A stretch of DNA of 32,461 bases, taken from the IMG/VR virus record IMGVR_UViG_3300037245_000950, positions 1 to 32,461 of that record. One strand, 5' to 3'. Below are positions 14,800 to 31,998 of the stretch, piece by piece. The translations under genes were made by a program, and so were the position numbers. This DNA comes from a virus. The notes under the pieces are model-generated. The model ran no database searches, was not told where the DNA came from, and saw only the letters and a program-made list of their open reading frames with translations. How positions within the stretch are numbered: position 1 is the first letter of the stretch; each line of letters opens with the position of its first letter.

Positions 14800-15341
14800 T
14801 GCCAGGAATAGGGATAGGTTTGGGTATTGGGTTAAAACGGACTGGTGATCCGTATGGCTCCGAGCTTTATAATTATGCTAATGCCTTAGCAGACCCAGCT
14901 GGGACGGAGGCTGACAGCACCTCTGGAATTACTGCCGGGGGATTAAGTGGGGGTAATACGTTTGCATCTCAGTCGGCTGTAAAAAATGCAGGTGTTTATT
15001 CTATTCACGCTGAAAGTAATGATACTCCCACAGGATCAGCCAGGGTATATTTTGATCTTACAGCAGTCAAGTTTAATTTTGTAAATGACGAAGAAGGTAA
15101 AATAGAGTTTGATGCCAGACACGTTGGGGTGGGTGGGATTTGGAGTGCCTACTTCGCTTCAAGTACTTTTGGTGTTAACAATTTGATAGATAGTGTAGAA
15201 AATACAGATATTACATTTCTCAGGTATAAGTATGAATTTACTTATGATGCTAATCATAGGTATTTTAATTTTCGTGAGAGAGGACTACTACATGATGGGG
15301 GTATATATTTAGATAATATTTCAGTTAAGAAAAAATTGTAA
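14799..15341 (+). CDS. stand-alone CBM-like beta-domain protein, 180 aa
   Basis: After a glycine-rich start (MPGIGIGLGIGLKRTGD) the body aligns with the C-terminal domain of the preceding protein: YGSELYNYANALADPAGTEAD against YGPELHDDANAASDPEGNEAD, SQSAVKNAGVYSIHAESNDTPT against SQGAVKDVGSYSIHANSNDTPT, RHVGVGGIW against RHVGAGGGW, and GGIYLDNISVKKKL against GGIYMDNLSFRKIL. By eye identity is roughly half. The fold is probably a carbohydrate-binding-module-like beta sandwich. The glycine-rich start could be a trimerising or anchoring tip. One-base overlaps tie it to both neighbours. Confidence 0.7.
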   Translation: MPGIGIGLGIGLKRTGDPYGSELYNYANALADPAGTEADSTSGITAGGLSGGNTFASQSAVKNAGVYSIHAESNDTPTGSARVYFDLTAVKFNFVNDEEGKIEFDARHVGVGGIWSAYFASSTFGVNNLIDSVENTDITFLRYKYEFTYDANHRYFNFRERGLLHDGGIYLDNISVKKKL

Positions 15342-16969
15342 TGAGTGGAGAATATCAAATAACAGAGGAAGATAGCTCATATTCGGTTGAAGAGTTTGAT
15401 TTACCGATGATTGTTATTAAGTATATTGCCACTCAATTTGTGTTCAAATTTAAAATGTCCTCAGCGTTTGAAATAACAATAGTAGACGGTGATGGAACTA
15501 TCACAAGTTATGATGGACTAGATAGCACCCAGATCACCCACACAACAGCCTATTCAACACCCGGATCTTATACTTTTCAAATAACCAAAAACTTTGAAAG
15601 GATATCATTTCTTGATCTAAGATTTATGGAGCATGCGAGTGGGAGTGCTGTTAATTTTTGGCCCCCGGCAGATTGTACAGAGTTTAGGATTTATGGATGC
15701 TCGTTTTATGGGGATGCTTCTGGATGGAGATTTAATCCCGCTATGACTGTTTTTCTGGTTGGTAATAACGGGGCACAAAATAAAGGGGATGGATTAAGTG
15801 GAGATATATCTAATTGGGATCTTCCATTTACAACAATAACTGAGTTTAGAATAAAAAATAATTCATTCTCTGGAGATCCTTCAGATTGGGTTTTTGATAA
15901 TATCCTTATTTCGAGGGTGGAATGTGATAACAACGCATTGTCTGGTAGTATGCCAAATATTGCGTTTCGTAATTCTGCCGCCCTTCACTACTCAATGAAC
16001 GGTAATTATTTTACGGGTGCTAATATTGATACATTTCGCCCCGCTATGACCAGGTTTGAGATAAACGACCAGAGGGCAGCATTTCCGACAGTAACGCTTG
16101 ATAGTTTATTAGAGGACATAGCGGATTATTTTCAGACAAACGCACCCTCCGCTGATTGTGTATTTGATTTCAGAGGAATCAATATGGGAATACCTACTGG
16201 TGGGGCAACAAATGTGGACAAAGTTAGGATAGAGGGATATTATACTGATGAGGGAAAGACGGCCTGGGTTTATGTAAATGAGAGTGACCCCGCCTTTGAC
16301 AACGGTAAGCTGGTATTGACATTTGATGGAAATATGACTTCCATTTACACTGTTGGCTATCCTGTATTTGTGGCAAAATCAGTCCAATGCACTATCTATT
16401 CATGGTCGGATGGAGTGGGAACCTCCGGAATGTACTCTTGGGCAAATATGGTAACAATGGACACCGGGGGTATGGATATGCAGGGCCACGCTCAGACCCA
16501 TACTGATATAACCGATCTAACAGAACAGGAATTAATAGATGAGCTTGAGGCTGTTGATGCTGCTTTTGTGGCTAATGGGTTAACAGCCCCAGATCACATA
16601 GCTTATCCTTTTGGGGAGAGGGATTCAGAAACAGATGCAATTGTGGATGGTTATAGATTATCGGGTAGAATATATTCAATAGACCTACCCAGGCCATTTG
16701 AATACAAAAACGCCATAAAATACTTTCTTAAATGCTATTGGATAGACGACAGGGCAGACCGCGACTTTGATCTTGCCGCCTTCAAATCTACAATGGACGA
16801 AGCCATGACAAATAAAGCCGCCTTAATATCAATAAGTCACAATATTAATTCCTTAAATACTTTCAAGTATGGTTTCGTAAAACAAAGTGACCTGGAGGCT
16901 ATAATTGATTATGCAGATGAGATTGGAATGGATATCATAACATTATCAGAATTTTATAATTTACTCTGA
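15341..16969 (+). CDS. tail protein with LRR-like repeats and NodB deacetylase domain, 542 aa
   Basis: Residues ~85-230 contain irregular leucine-rich-type repeats (LVGNNGAQNKGDGLSGDISNW, FRIKNNSFSGDPSDW, CDNNALSGSMPN, MNGNYFTG) like the BspA class. The C-terminal ~200 residues are a NodB-type polysaccharide deacetylase: motif 1 YSWSDG (Asp357), motif 2 HAQTH (383-387, metal-binding histidines), motif 3 AYPFG (421-425). Such enzymes remove acetyl groups from sugars using a divalent metal. In a phage tail this would modify capsule or O-antigen at the host surface. Motif 1 is SDG rather than the usual DDG, so activity needs testing. Confidence 0.8.
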   Translation: MSGEYQITEEDSSYSVEEFDLPMIVIKYIATQFVFKFKMSSAFEITIVDGDGTITSYDGLDSTQITHTTAYSTPGSYTFQITKNFERISFLDLRFMEHASGSAVNFWPPADCTEFRIYGCSFYGDASGWRFNPAMTVFLVGNNGAQNKGDGLSGDISNWDLPFTTITEFRIKNNSFSGDPSDWVFDNILISRVECDNNALSGSMPNIAFRNSAALHYSMNGNYFTGANIDTFRPAMTRFEINDQRAAFPTVTLDSLLEDIADYFQTNAPSADCVFDFRGINMGIPTGGATNVDKVRIEGYYTDEGKTAWVYVNESDPAFDNGKLVLTFDGNMTSIYTVGYPVFVAKSVQCTIYSWSDGVGTSGMYSWANMVTMDTGGMDMQGHAQTHTDITDLTEQELIDELEAVDAAFVANGLTAPDHIAYPFGERDSETDAIVDGYRLSGRIYSIDLPRPFEYKNAIKYFLKCYWIDDRADRDFDLAAFKSTMDEAMTNKAALISISHNINSLNTFKYGFVKQSDLEAIIDYADEIGMDIITLSEFYNLL

Positions 16970-28490: not shown

Positions 28491-28876
28491 AGCATGAGTT
28501 CAGCGGGAACATTGATAACGAAGGTGTGTTGAGACTCAAGATGATCGAGCTTCGCCAGCTGGTAAAGCAGCACCCAAATAAACAGGTAATCGTTACAGTT
28601 GAGATCCTGGATGGTGGGGATGTTGAGATAATGAAGGCGTGGTACCGGAACTATGTTTTACCGAAAGTTGTAACAGCATGGCGAGAGCTTGGAGAAACCT
28701 ACACTGTTGAGCAAGCAGATTATCACCTCATGCGTTCTACAACGGTCAGGTGCCAGCACAGAAATAAAGAGGGAGGAATTGCAGGAGTCGAAGATCTGGA
28801 CCGGGAAAACTTAAAACGATATTTAGATGAAGTAACGATATTTGCTAGTACTAACTTAAATTGTATTCTGAAATGA
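28478..28876 (+). CDS. hypothetical recombination-region protein, 132 aa
   Basis: Unrecognised. The middle (MKAWYRNYVLPKVVTAWRELGETYTVEQADYHLM) has a W-Y-x-x-Y-x-x-P-x-x-x-x-x-W-x-x-x-G layout somewhat like NinB-type phage proteins, but the match is weak. Overlaps both neighbours (ATGA at 28873). Confidence 0.6.
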   Translation: MEGIKHEFSGNIDNEGVLRLKMIELRQLVKQHPNKQVIVTVEILDGGDVEIMKAWYRNYVLPKVVTAWRELGETYTVEQADYHLMRSTTVRCQHRNKEGGIAGVEDLDRENLKRYLDEVTIFASTNLNCILK

Positions 28877-29385
28877 AAAATGGAATTACGAGGGAAAACT
28901 TCAGCCTCAAAGATCTGAAGTTGCTTAAAGGTGGTGGCATTGAGTCCACCACAATTATTGAAATGAACATCGATGGTGCATTCATGGAGATCAAGCGTAA
29001 GCAGGAAACTCCGGTTGTACCACACCCTGATCTGGAAAACCTTCTAAGAGGGTTGAAGGAAAATCTTCTGATCTCATGCAGGTTTAAAGGATTACCCAAA
29101 AAGGAATTGGATATCTTGAAGGAGAAAACAACCGTGACCGCAGTTCATGTATCAGGCCAGGAGCAGAACGAAGGTGTAATCATTTCCGGCAAGATCCAGG
29201 CAGAGAACGGCAGCAACATCGCAATCAACTCACCAAGGATGCGCTTCACTTCAGCGGTGTATGGGTTTGAAGAACAACTGCAGAGTGAGGTTGCCTTGCT
29301 TGAAGGTGAGTTGTTCAAGTATCTGCATGAGGACAAGAAGGCACAGCTTGAGATCCTGGAACCAGAAGAAGGTGCAAAAGCATAA
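28873..29385 (+). CDS. hypothetical protein, 170 aa
   Basis: Unrecognised. The N-terminus (MKNGITRENFSLKDLKLLKGGGIESTTIIEM) precedes a beta-rich domain with VVPHPDLENLL, and the chain ends in an acidic coiled coil (EEQLQSEVALLEGELFKYLHEDKKAQLEILEPEEG). ATG 28873 overlaps the upstream stop by 4 bases; a longer frame from TTG 28861 is less likely. It is the last gene before the IS110-related locus, 27 bases upstream. Confidence 0.6.
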   Translation: MKNGITRENFSLKDLKLLKGGGIESTTIIEMNIDGAFMEIKRKQETPVVPHPDLENLLRGLKENLLISCRFKGLPKKELDILKEKTTVTAVHVSGQEQNEGVIISGKIQAENGSNIAINSPRMRFTSAVYGFEEQLQSEVALLEGELFKYLHEDKKAQLEILEPEEGAKA

Positions 29386-29412
29386 AAAATAACCACTAAA
29401 ATTTACTATATT

Positions 29413-30366
29413 ATGGCAAACAAAGTAGCAATCAAAAAAGCAGCCGTAAAAAAACAGAACGGCAAATGTAATCTATCTGACAACAGATTACCTGTTGAAA
29501 TAGAATTACAAGACACCCACCGACCGAAGCCAAAAAGAAAGGGAGGAATATACACCTCAAAAAATACCACTGTGGTAGATCCTGTTGCTCACATGATTGA
29601 ACACGGAACACTCCGTTTACGAACAGGAGAGCTTCAAACCCTGAAACAATTGATTGATGAAAGGGAACATGCTATGCGATTGTTATACAAGATCAACAAT
29701 CAACTCCTGGCTGTGAAACGTCGGACTGATGACGCTTCCACATCTACCATCAATCATCTACAAAACAATTTAGAGGTCAATACGAAATGGAAAAATGAGG
29801 TCAGCAAGACCCTCGAAAAGCATATCAAACAAATGGCGAAGAACGATCCACTCATTACGTCGTGTTTCTCTGTTCGTGGGATAGGCCCAATTTCAATTGC
29901 TTATTGCATAGCGTATATTGATTTGGAGAAAGCCCGTCATGCTTCTGCCCTTTGGAGTTATACCGGACTTCATAAGGCTTCGCACGAAAGATACGAAAAG
30001 AATGTTGCAGGAGGAGGGAACAAGCGACTCAGGACCGTCCTGTACATGATGGCAGAATCTCAAATGAAATTACAAGGGGCCTATCGTAGTGTGTATGATA
30101 ATATCAAGAATCGGTTGGAGCATAGTGAAAAGATAACCAAGAGTCGAAATACCCAGGGCAAGTTGATTGAATGTGCTTGGAAAGACACTAAACCCTGTCA
30201 CCGTCATGGTGCTGCTCTTCGGGCAGTTATGAAACATTTCTTGGCTGACTATTGGTATGTTGGTAGGAAGTTGAGCGGATTGCCTGTATCACCTTTATAC
30301 CCTGAAGCGGTCTTGGGGGGAAATCATCGTACCATTATGCCAGAGGAGAGAGGCTGGGAATATTAA
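29413..30366 (+). CDS. IS110-family Transposase_20-only protein (no DEDD domain), 317 aa
   Basis: Residues ~145-280 carry the C-terminal Transposase_20 domain of IS110/IS1111 recombinases: helix-hairpin-helix VRGIGPISIAYCIAYID (154-170), LWSYTGL (180-186), GGGNKRLRTVLYMMAESQMK (200-219), then AYRSVYDNIKNR, and an HRHGAALRAVMKHFLADYW C-terminus. In IS110 enzymes this domain holds the catalytic serine; Ser190 in the LHKAS stretch is the only close candidate, by eye. The N-terminal DEDD/RuvC domain that starts G-I-D-x-S is absent; instead residues 1-50 are lysine-rich and ~65-140 look like a coiled coil. No IS ends or target duplication are seen. Its stop is 12 bases before the 36-bp array. It could be a guided recombinase relative, a domesticated nucleic-acid binder, or an inactive derivative. 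Confidence 0.75.
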   Translation: MANKVAIKKAAVKKQNGKCNLSDNRLPVEIELQDTHRPKPKRKGGIYTSKNTTVVDPVAHMIEHGTLRLRTGELQTLKQLIDEREHAMRLLYKINNQLLAVKRRTDDASTSTINHLQNNLEVNTKWKNEVSKTLEKHIKQMAKNDPLITSCFSVRGIGPISIAYCIAYIDLEKARHASALWSYTGLHKASHERYEKNVAGGGNKRLRTVLYMMAESQMKLQGAYRSVYDNIKNRLEHSEKITKSRNTQGKLIECAWKDTKPCHRHGAALRAVMKHFLADYWYVGRKLSGLPVSPLYPEAVLGGNHRTIMPEERGWEY

Positions 30367-30377
30367 CCAAGTTAATA
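30361..30377. repeat. perfect 7-bp inverted repeat at the array's left edge
   Basis: TATTAAC and GTTAATA around CAA. It contains the TAA of the upstream gene and ends two bases before the first array motif. As RNA it would be a small AT-rich hairpin; as DNA a dyad-symmetric site. Confidence 0.6.
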
Positions 30378-30378
30378 A

Positions 30379-30801
30379 AGAAACCCATAACTCTTAAATG
30401 AATCACTGATAAGAAGAAACCCACTGAATTGAAATGAATCACCACCCGGAAGAACCCCAAAATGATTAAATGAATCACGAAGTATGAGAAAACCATACCT
30501 GGAGAATGAATCATGCTTAGAAAGAAACCCACAACATTAAAGTGAATCAAGTAATATAAGAAAACCATCCTCTAAAAATGAATCACCAAAGGGAAGAAAA
30601 CCATTCTGCGAAAATGAATCAGGAAATAAAAGAAAACTATGTTACTTAAATGAATCACGAAATATTAGAAAACCATACCTTGAGAATGAATCAATTTGCA
30701 TAAGAAAACCATAATGGTAAAATGAATCATATTTGAAAAGAAACCCAGGCCAGCCAAATGAATCAAAGATATTAAGAAACCCATGCACTTTAAATGCAAA
30801 A
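30379..30801. repeat. 36-bp two-motif array with variable 9-base spacers
   Basis: No gene in this 427-base gap. It holds units of exactly 36 bp: motif A (AGAAAMCCA), 9 variable bases, motif B (AATGAATCA), 9 variable bases. A starts at 30379 and every 36 bases to 30775 (12 copies); B starts at 30397 and every 36 to 30757 (11 copies), plus degenerate B sites at 30361 and 30793. B is perfect in ten copies and AGTGAATCA in one; A alternates between AGAAACCCA (units 1, 2, 5, 11, 12) and AGAAAACCA (4, 6, 7, 9, 10), with single variants in 3 and 8. A-to-B spacers: taactctta, ctgaattga, aaatgatta, tacctggag, caacattaa, tcctctaaa, ttctgcgaa, tgttactta, taccttgag, taatggtaa, ggccagcca, tgcacttta. B-to-A: ctgataaga, ccacccgga, cgaagtatg, tgcttagaa, agtaatata, ccaaaggga, ggaaataaa, cgaaatatt, atttgcata, tatttgaaa, aagatatta. 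Spacers tend to begin with T (A-to-B) or C (B-to-A) and end in A, leaving about 7 free bases. Confidence 0.97.
30784..30798. repeat. imperfect palindrome at the array's right edge
   Basis: TGCA-C-TTTAAA-TGCA is a 15-base palindrome with one mismatched pair. It begins right after the last A motif and covers the ATG of the HNH-like gene, mirroring the inverted repeat at the left edge. Confidence 0.45.
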
Positions 30802-31102
30802 ACATAAGCGTATATACCTTGAATACTTTAGTTATGGCGAACAGGATATGGTTCCGTCGGAGTATTCCGGTTTACGTGCAGAACATATTCACCACTTAAC
30901 AGGAAGGGGAGAAGGAAAAGATGAAATTTGGAACCTTATGGCCCTTACGGGCGAGGAACACGACAGAATCCACAGGCCGCAACCTTGGCAGAATGGCCAA
31001 GCGTTTAATCTCGAATGTGCGAGAATTCATGCGGAGCAGCTTCGGCTTCGGGGCTACAAAGAATGGGATAAAGCGTTGCAAATCTTGCAAGAGGCCGCTT
31101 AG
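30794..31102 (+). CDS. HNH-like protein without zinc cysteines, 102 aa
   Basis: The segment AEHIHHLTGRGEGKDEIWNLMALTGEEHDRIH (residues 29-60) matches phage HNH proteins of the pattern D-I-H-H-I-x-x-R-G-x-G...E-N-L-x-A-L-C-x-x-C-H. His33-His34, Asn47 and His56/His60 are kept. Where relatives usually have two CxxC zinc pairs, this one has S-E-Y-S (22-25) and L-T-G-E-E-H (51-56). It may be a zinc-free or inactive nuclease. The start codon lies exactly where the next B motif's ATG would be. It overlaps a zinc-ribbon gene by up to 74 bases. Confidence 0.7.
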   Translation: MQKHKRIYLEYFSYGEQDMVPSEYSGLRAEHIHHLTGRGEGKDEIWNLMALTGEEHDRIHRPQPWQNGQAFNLECARIHAEQLRLRGYKEWDKALQILQEAA

Positions 31103-31202
31103 TAAACAGAAGTCGATCATTCGTGGGTATGGTCCGGTGTGTTATAAGAAAGAGACAGAAAGACTTAAATTTTTCTTAGCATTGTTCGATGATGATGAAT
31201 AG
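31029..31202 (+). CDS. DUF6011-like zinc-ribbon protein (start uncertain), 57 aa
   Basis: The C-terminal 45 residues contain RCKSCKRPLSKQKSIIRGYGPVC (Cys17, Cys20, Cys38 from this start), the pattern of small DUF6011-type ribbons with a conserved GYGPxC. Upstream in-frame starts exist at 30921 and 30993, but all overlap the HNH-like gene in another frame; 31029 gives the smallest overlap with an ATG. Overlaps the methylase gene by 14 bases. Confidence 0.6.
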   Translation: MRSSFGFGATKNGIKRCKSCKRPLSKQKSIIRGYGPVCYKKETERLKFFLALFDDDE

Positions 31203-31998
31203 AACACCCATTTCATACTACGGAGGTAAACAAGGAATGCAGAAAAAAATACTCCCACTGATCCCGAAGCATCGGGTTTATGTAGAACCGTTCTTTGGAG
31301 GTGGAACAATCTTCTTTGCTAAAGGTCCGTCGTACCTGGAAGTGATCAACGACATAAACGATAACGTGGTAAACTTCTTTGAAGTGATGCAGAAGGACTT
31401 CGATCGTTTGAAGGTGGAAGTTCAATGTTCGATGATGTCAGAGGCACAGCATAAGAAAGCGTTGAAGATCTATAAGAATCCGGCAGACTGGGATCCGCTT
31501 GAACGAGCCTGGGCTTTCTGGTATGTAACCAATTTCAGCTTTGCAAACAAACCAGGCGGGGGTTGGAAATTTGATGCAGGTACCGCAAATTCACACGCTG
31601 GCCGGCAAGTGAAACGCAGACGGGACCAGTTCAAATATTATAAGGATAGGCTGTCAGAAGTACAGATTTCATGCAGGGATGCGATCAGGGTAATCAATGA
31701 TCGAGACAGTGAGGACACATTTTTCTATCTTGATCCACCTTACCCATGCAGCGACCAGGGACACTACAAAGGGTACACGGAAAAGGATCTAAAAAACCTG
31801 CTTTTCACTATTACAACCATTAAAGGTAAATTCATGCTATCGAATTATATGAGCGATACGCTTAAATGCTTTATTGCAGCACACAAATGGCAAGTGAAGG
31901 AATACGATATGAGGCTATCAGCACCGAGGGCAAAAGGCCAAAGGAAGCGGGAGATCTTGGTTATGAATTATGAACCTGAAAATATATTATTCAAATGA
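31189..31998 (+). CDS. dam: Dam-type DNA adenine methyltransferase, 269 aa
   Basis: N6-adenine methylase of the D12/Dam class: ISYYGGKQGM (8-17), the SAM-binding FFGGGT (35-40), and catalytic DPPY at 182-185 within FYLDPPYPC. It transfers a methyl group to adenine, probably in GATC though the target is inferred from the family. In a phage it would protect the genome from host restriction or mark it. Starts at one of three ATGs (31189, 31192, 31195). The stop overlaps SSB by 4 bases. Confidence 0.85.
   Translation: MMMNRTPISYYGGKQGMQKKILPLIPKHRVYVEPFFGGGTIFFAKGPSYLEVINDINDNVVNFFEVMQKDFDRLKVEVQCSMMSEAQHKKALKIYKNPADWDPLERAWAFWYVTNFSFANKPGGGWKFDAGTANSHAGRQVKRRRDQFKYYKDRLSEVQISCRDAIRVINDRDSEDTFFYLDPPYPCSDQGHYKGYTEKDLKNLLFTITTIKGKFMLSNYMSDTLKCFIAAHKWQVKEYDMRLSAPRAKGQRKREILVMNYEPENILFK

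What the first reader, a model, noticed from the sequence alone, without database searches (positions are those of the whole stretch)
29413..30801. IS110-derived Transposase_20-only protein next to a two-motif spacer array: candidate new guided system
Seen: a 317-aa IS110-related gene ends 12 bases before an array of 12 A and 11 B motifs, strictly alternating at 18-bp steps with variable 9-base spacers. Known: IS110 recombinases use a bridge RNA, encoded in the non-coding end of the element, whose loops hold short programmable segments for target and donor DNA. Inference: the array may be transcribed into an RNA carrying many short guide segments, bound through the A and B motifs by the protein. 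No IS ends are seen, so the unit looks like a resident phage system rather than a transposon. I know no described system with this layout.
Basis: partly seen in the sequence, partly recalled or inferred. Interest (0 to 1): 0.97.

Follow-up and report, generated by a model that had tools for sequence, protein, structure and literature searches.

The report
Phage TIGR-TasH RNA-guided nuclease system
The gene and the repeat array beside it are a phage-borne TIGR-Tas system, a kind of RNA-guided DNA cutter described in 2025; this is a new member of that known kind, and what such phage systems target in nature is still unknown.

Summary
The 317-aa protein is a TasH. It aligns over residues 9-317 with the solved TasH of Salicola phage CGphi29 (E=1.2e-95), is 51% identical to it by tblastn, and passes NCBI's TIGR_Tas_endo model (109.9 bits; cut-off 100). 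The array is a textbook TIGR array: 12 loop repeats (AAGAAAMCCA) alternate with 11 full and 2 truncated edge repeats (AAATGAATCA). The 36-nt units carry two 8-nt spacers each, giving 12 predicted tigRNAs. All 26 relatives examined carry the same 36-bp dual-repeat array beside the gene, and edge-repeat pairs covary (C-G to T-A, G-C to A-T).

"Transposase_20-only" is wrong: the N-terminus aligns with the HNH part of TasH. "No described system" is wrong too: this is TIGR-Tas (Faure et al. 2025, PMC12045711). Inferred mechanism: the array RNA is cut into 36-nt guides that direct a TasH dimer to DNA matching spacer A on one strand and spacer B on the other.

I found no convincing natural target. 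Matches in 26 array-bearing phages gave at most a weak, unreplicated excess at one spacing. New member of a known kind.

The parts
29413..30366 (+). tasH gene, 317 aa: TIGR-associated protein with N-terminal HNH region, coiled coil and Nop (IS110/Transposase_20-like) domain
   Evidence: NCBIfam NF052498 TIGR_Tas_endo 109.9 bits, cut-off 100; PDB TasH E=1.2e-95; AlphaFold model matches TasH-tigRNA-dsDNA 9w04 at E=1.5e-25
29455..29607 (+). HNH-type nuclease region, residues about 15-65 (D34, H36, R37, GG44-45, N51, H60, H64)
   Evidence: aligned with SpTasH N-terminus; D34, R37, G44, G45, N51 invariant and H60, H64 at least 90% conserved in 10 homologues; low model confidence here
29626..29838 (+). 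coiled-coil dimerisation region, residues about 72-142
   Evidence: predicted helices 72-102 and 110-142, pLDDT about 90 or more; coiled coil known in Tas
30360..30369 (+). 5'-truncated first edge repeat (ATATTAACCA), overlapping the tasH stop codon
   Evidence: chain parse of the array
30360..30801 (+). TIGR array: 12 loop repeats at 30378+36k, 11 full edge repeats at 30396+36k, truncated edges at both ends, 24 spacers of 8 nt, 12 predicted 36-nt tigRNAs
30792..30801 (+). 3'-truncated last edge repeat (AAATGCAAAA); the ATG at 30794 of the next ORF lies inside it
30794..31102 (+). 102-aa HNH-like ORF just after the array; membership in the system not shown
   Evidence: weak PHROG HNH (0.0028) and PADLOC homing endonuclease (0.0055) hits; no relatives found

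Best explanation
This is a TIGR-TasH system carried by a bacteriophage. The array (co-transcribed with or just after tasH; inferred) is cut inside each edge repeat into 36-nt tigRNAs of the form 5'-[edge half]-spacer A (8)-loop repeat-spacer B (8)-[edge half]-3'. A TasH dimer holds the loop repeat with one Nop domain and the joined edge halves with the other. It opens DNA where spacer A pairs with one strand and spacer B with the adjacent stretch of the other strand, and cuts both strands with its N-terminal HNH domains without needing a PAM. Shown here: protein family, array anatomy, edge-pair covariation and universal gene-array linkage. Shown in the literature for the homologue: 36-nt processing, dual-strand pairing, HNH-dependent cutting. 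Inferred: that this copy is expressed and catalytically active, and that its guides act against competing mobile DNA.
For: PDB TasH hit E=1.2e-95 over residues 9-317, and that PDB sequence matches the SpTasH gene product of Salicola phage CGphi29 at every residue of the 309 aligned. NCBIfam TIGR_Tas_endo above its equivalog cut-off, IS110 model far below its own (39.1 against 140). Fold match to TasH-tigRNA-dsDNA E=1.5e-25 against IS621 at 3.6e-5. The array matches the published definition: two alternating 8-12-nt repeats, short spacers, truncated edge repeats at both ends. All 26 relatives carry the array beside the gene: 337 units parsed, 331 spacer A and 329 spacer B exactly 8 nt (window included). 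In 115 full edge repeats, pair 4-7 is complementary in 97% and pair 3-8 in 90%, with C-G/T-A and G-C/A-T switches, as the structure paper predicts. No DNA similarity outside tas plus array between the window and ten relatives, so it behaves as a movable cassette.
Against: No transcript or cleavage data for this locus. No terminator follows the array directly, unlike the typical TIGR array. Position 36 is H where SpTasH has D, though several relatives also have H. The HNH region is modelled with low confidence. No natural target found.
Confidence: 0.93

Rival explanations
1. An IS110-family transposase with a bridge RNA, that is, a decayed or unusual insertion sequence.
For: Transposase_20 hit and a distant IS621 match (0.0011); the Nop fold is shared.
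Against: NCBIfam IS110 39.1 bits against a cut-off of 140 while TIGR_Tas_endo passes; the N-terminus aligns with the HNH region of TasH, not a DEDD catalytic domain; many short guide units instead of one bridge RNA; the same array in all relatives.
Confidence: 0.02
2. A repeat array of another kind (iterons of a replication origin, or a repetitive coding region) that happens to lie beside the gene.
For: 36 is a multiple of 3, and iterons are short direct repeats.
Against: No ORF spans the array in any frame; two alternating motifs with random-looking spacers; the array lies upstream, downstream or on both sides of tas but always beside it; edge pairs covary as RNA pairs.
Confidence: 0.02
3. 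The system is TIGR-Tas but this copy does not cut; it binds DNA as a guide-directed blocker or regulator.
For: H at position 36 where SpTasH has D; published solo-Nop TasA proteins lack nucleases; HNH region modelled poorly.
Against: D34, R37, GG, N51, H60 and H64 are kept, and H36 recurs in at least four relatives.
Confidence: 0.2
4. The guides target alleles of the phage's own or neighbouring genes in close relatives, a homing-like or competition device, rather than unrelated mobile DNA.
For: Units at 30486 and 30666 are a diverged duplicate whose predicted targets differ only at synonymous third positions and encode YLEYF, a peptide also encoded by the ORF right after the array (30815). Unit 30522 matches the closest relative's genome with one mismatch (L015:3417). 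Excess of 1-mismatch matches at 2-bp spacing among TIGR-bearing phages: 22 units, shuffled mean 10.4, maximum 20 of 80 shuffles.
Against: No general excess of peptide matches in own genomes (31 against 30.5 shuffled) or neighbouring genes; no exact matches in the predicted arrangement; the spacing signal was not seen in other phage DNA and was found after trying several spacings and orientations; IMG/VR scans looked random.
Confidence: 0.12

Closest known systems
SpTIGR-TasH of Salicola phage CGphi29 (Faure et al. 2025, PMC12045711; cryo-EM entries 9w04, 9vzx, 21kl and others)
   Same: 51% identical TasH over 96% of length, 36-nt units with 8+8-nt spacers, array directly downstream
   Different: Edge AAATGAATCA instead of AAGCGAGCCA and loop AAGAAAMCCA instead of AAGACAACCA; no terminator right after the array; different spacers and neighbours; H36 instead of D
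TIGR-TasR (Thermoproteota archaeon, PDB 9mty)
   Same: Nop domain, coiled coil, dual-repeat array, tandem-spacer targeting
   Different: RuvC instead of HNH, 9-nt spacers; only 24% identity in the fold match
IS110/IS621 bridge-RNA recombinases
   Same: Related Nop-type RNA-binding domain
   Different: DEDD recombinase with one bridge RNA and transposition; no guide array
Box C/D snoRNP (Nop5/Nop58), known from the literature
   Same: Nop domain, C/D-like motifs flanking two guides (PMC12045711)
   Different: Guides RNA methylation, not DNA cleavage

Membership tests
TIGR-Tas | Nop-domain Tas protein | tested here: met
   NCBIfam NF052498 109.9 bits, cut-off 100; fold match to TasH structures
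TIGR-Tas | Array of two alternating 8-12-nt repeats with short variable spacers, beside tas | tested here: met
   10-nt edge and loop repeats, 8-nt spacers, starting at the tas stop codon
TIGR-Tas | 36-nt unit, truncated edge repeats at both array ends | tested here: met
   Period 36 throughout; partial edges at 30360-30369 and 30792-30801
TIGR-Tas | Covarying base pairs within the edge repeat (box C/D pairing) | tested here: met
   Pairs 4-7 97% and 3-8 90% complementary over 115 edges, with compensatory switches
TIGR-Tas | Rho-independent terminator after the array (typical, not universal) | tested here: not met
   No terminator-like site between the array end and 30984
TIGR-Tas | 36-nt processed tigRNAs; RNA-guided DNA binding or cleavage | not testable with these tools
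   Shown for the homologue SpTasH only
TIGR-TasH subtype | N-terminal HNH nuclease domain | tested here: met
   Alignment with SpTasH from residue 9; conserved D34, R37, GG, N51, H60, H64. Activity untested; AlphaFold confidence is low for residues 1-47
IS110 transposase | Passes the IS110 family model (DEDD N-terminus plus Transposase_20) | tested here: not met
   39.1 bits against a cut-off of 140; the match covers profile positions 102-299 of 343, so the N-terminal catalytic part is not matched
IS110 transposase | Mobile element with defined ends and a bridge RNA | tested here: inconclusive
   No Rfam match in 28800-31300; element ends not searched beyond reading the flanks

The most novel reading that the evidence does not exclude
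The tandem spacers of phage TIGR-TasH arrays are aimed at alleles of genes in competing, related phages and are rewritten in place as targets diverge, so that the cassette works as a homing-like weapon between phages; the natural spacing for 8-nt spacers would be two base pairs, giving an 18-bp site.
Probability: 0.1. Interest if true: 0.7.

Novelty: new member of a known kind. Interest (0 to 1): 0.27.

Why it matters
TIGR-Tas is a recently described family of compact, PAM-free RNA-guided nucleases whose natural targets are unknown. This is a clear new TasH with a closely comparable homologue set. The 337 guide units parsed from the window and 26 relatives, and the pairs of related phages with partly different arrays, are useful material for finding natural targets and the way arrays change. 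The window system itself adds a member, not a principle.

Tried and rejected
IS110 insertion sequence: IS110 model fails its cut-off and the N-terminus is HNH-like. Iteron or coding repeat: no spanning ORF, RNA-like covariation, linkage to tas. HNH ORF 30794-31102 as a split nuclease of the system: no relatives found and the Tas protein has its own HNH region, so it is not part of the system on present evidence. Target search in own genome and 12 array-bearing contigs: no exact match in the predicted arrangement and near matches at the shuffled rate. Peptide-level self-targeting: 31 against 30.5 shuffled, 2 against 0.95 near arrays (that ORF caller merged the window's YLEYF gene with tas, so that one hit was not counted there). 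Exact IMG/VR scans for two predicted targets gave 20 and 44 hits in unrelated genes and mixed frames, with no similarity to window proteins. All-against-all in 26 genomes: excess at a 2-bp gap, not replicated in other phage DNA. Mycobacteriophage stem-array targets: none in ten mycobacteriophage genomes (nine with the array, plus Che8) nor by BLAST of three targets at gap 0 (sensitivity not calibrated). No relatives in genome contigs. No Rfam match.

Full report
What is there. The window is a bacteriophage record (G000, 32,461 bases) with tail, replication and small unknown genes. At 29413-30366 lies a 317-aa ORF. NCBIfam calls it 'TIGR-Tas system RNA-guided endonuclease' above its equivalog cut-off, while the IS110 model stays far below its own. 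The PDB TasH chain matches the gene product of Salicola phage CGphi29 residue for residue over its 309 aa, the founding TasH of Faure et al. 2025 (PMC12045711); the window protein is 51% identical to it. An AlphaFold model (mean pLDDT 78.7, poor for residues 1-47) matches TasH-tigRNA-dsDNA structures at E=1.5e-25, TasR at 4e-9 and IS621 at 4e-5.

The array. Twelve loop repeats (AAGAAAMCCA, first at 30378) and eleven full edge repeats (AAATGAATCA, first at 30396) alternate at exactly 18-bp steps. That gives 12 units of spacer A (8 nt), loop and spacer B (8 nt), the same 8+8 layout as SpTIGR (16 variable nt). Lag-36 self-match is 0.62 against 0.43 at most in 2000 shuffles. No terminator directly follows.

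Relatives. Two protein searches of IMG/VR plus the Salicola phage give 26 relatives, found by protein only (L116 and L118 have identical arrays and may be one phage). All have the 36-bp dual-repeat array directly upstream, downstream or on both sides. Parsing gave 337 units with the window's included; 331 spacer A and 329 spacer B are exactly 8 nt. In 115 full edge repeats from twelve loci, positions 4-7 pair in 97% and 3-8 in 90%, with C-G/T-A and G-C/A-T switches between loci; the window is A-T/T-A, Salicola mostly G-C/C-G. This is the covarying edge pair described from the TasR structure. DNA similarity between the window and ten relatives is confined to tas and array, so the unit moves as a cassette.

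Nuclease. D34, R37, G44-G45 and N51 are invariant, and H60 and H64 nearly so, in ten homologues. Position 36 is H here and in several relatives, D in SpTasH. I judge it probably active, unproven.

How it most likely works. Literature on the homologue: the array transcript is cut within edge repeats into 36-nt tigRNAs, Tas dimers bind one tigRNA, spacer A pairs with one DNA strand and spacer B with the other, and TasH cuts both strands with no PAM. All sequence features needed for that are present here. The biological role is unknown in the literature and remains so.

Targets. For the predicted site (spacer A, 0-4 bp, reverse complement of spacer B) I searched the window, relatives' genomes and other phages. 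No exact match was found among 26 array-bearing genomes. One-mismatch matches totalled 74 against a shuffled mean of 53 (maximum 70 of 80), the excess lying at a 2-bp gap (22 units against 10.4). Two extra base pairs would turn an 8+8 site into the 18-bp site of TasR, and the PDB holds a 'TasH-tigRNA-gap dsDNA' complex, so the spacing is plausible. But several spacings and orientations were tried, there are no exact hits, and other phage DNA shows nothing. I treat it as a lead. So too the diverged duplicate units 30486/30666, whose predicted targets encode YLEYF with only synonymous differences, as does the ORF after the array; across loci there is no such excess.

Verdict. Observation confirmed; interpretation right in kind, wrong on novelty and domain content. 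New member of a known kind.

Noticed in passing
L013:2801-3843 (Mycobacterium phage Euphoria) and L134-L141: Fromanvirus mycobacteriophages carry a TasA-like protein annotated 'transposase', 'DNA binding' or hypothetical (Euphoria gp70: TIGR_Tas_endo 232 bits; 74 Mycobacterium phage records hit). Upstream lie five stem-loop units like the published TIGR stem arrays; stems and inner box motifs are conserved but many of the 9-nt spacer pairs differ between phages whose TasA is 97-100% identical. A Cas4-type exonuclease gene lies just downstream in the records viewed. These are cultured phages with a laboratory host; no spacer target found in ten mycobacteriophage genomes.
   Followed up: partly
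L114:6957-7462 and L115:6948-7489: Two phages about 90% identical in flanking DNA share five identical guide units in the same order, two with one base changed, one sharing only spacer A, and the rest unrelated. Spacers seem to be replaced in place, sometimes one of a pair, rather than added at one end.
   Followed up: partly
L014:4953-5945 (Microcystis phage Mvi-JY20): A 241-aa Tas without the HNH region (TIGR_Tas_endo 193 bits) annotated hypothetical, followed directly by a dual-repeat array of about 36-bp period.
   Followed up: partly
window 30486 and 30666: Two guide units are a diverged duplicate: predicted targets TACCTGGAATACTTCG and TACCTTGAATATTTCG both encode YLEYF, as does the ORF at 30794 (30815-30829).
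   Followed up: yes
window 30522 and L015:3417: Predicted target of this unit matches the genome of the closest relative with one mismatch, inside a small HNH-type ORF (L002 7427-7750).
   Followed up: partly
window 30794-31998: After the array come an HNH-like ORF whose ATG lies in the last edge repeat, a DUF6011 ORF and a D12-class adenine methyltransferase.
   Followed up: partly
window 15341-16969: 542-aa protein with a polysaccharide deacetylase domain (5.6e-10) among what look like structural genes.
   Followed up: no
L113 (same contig as L004) tas: A relative with the conserved HNH histidines replaced (RMKKQ instead of HMxxH) but an intact array, possibly a natural nuclease-dead TasH.
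   Followed up: no
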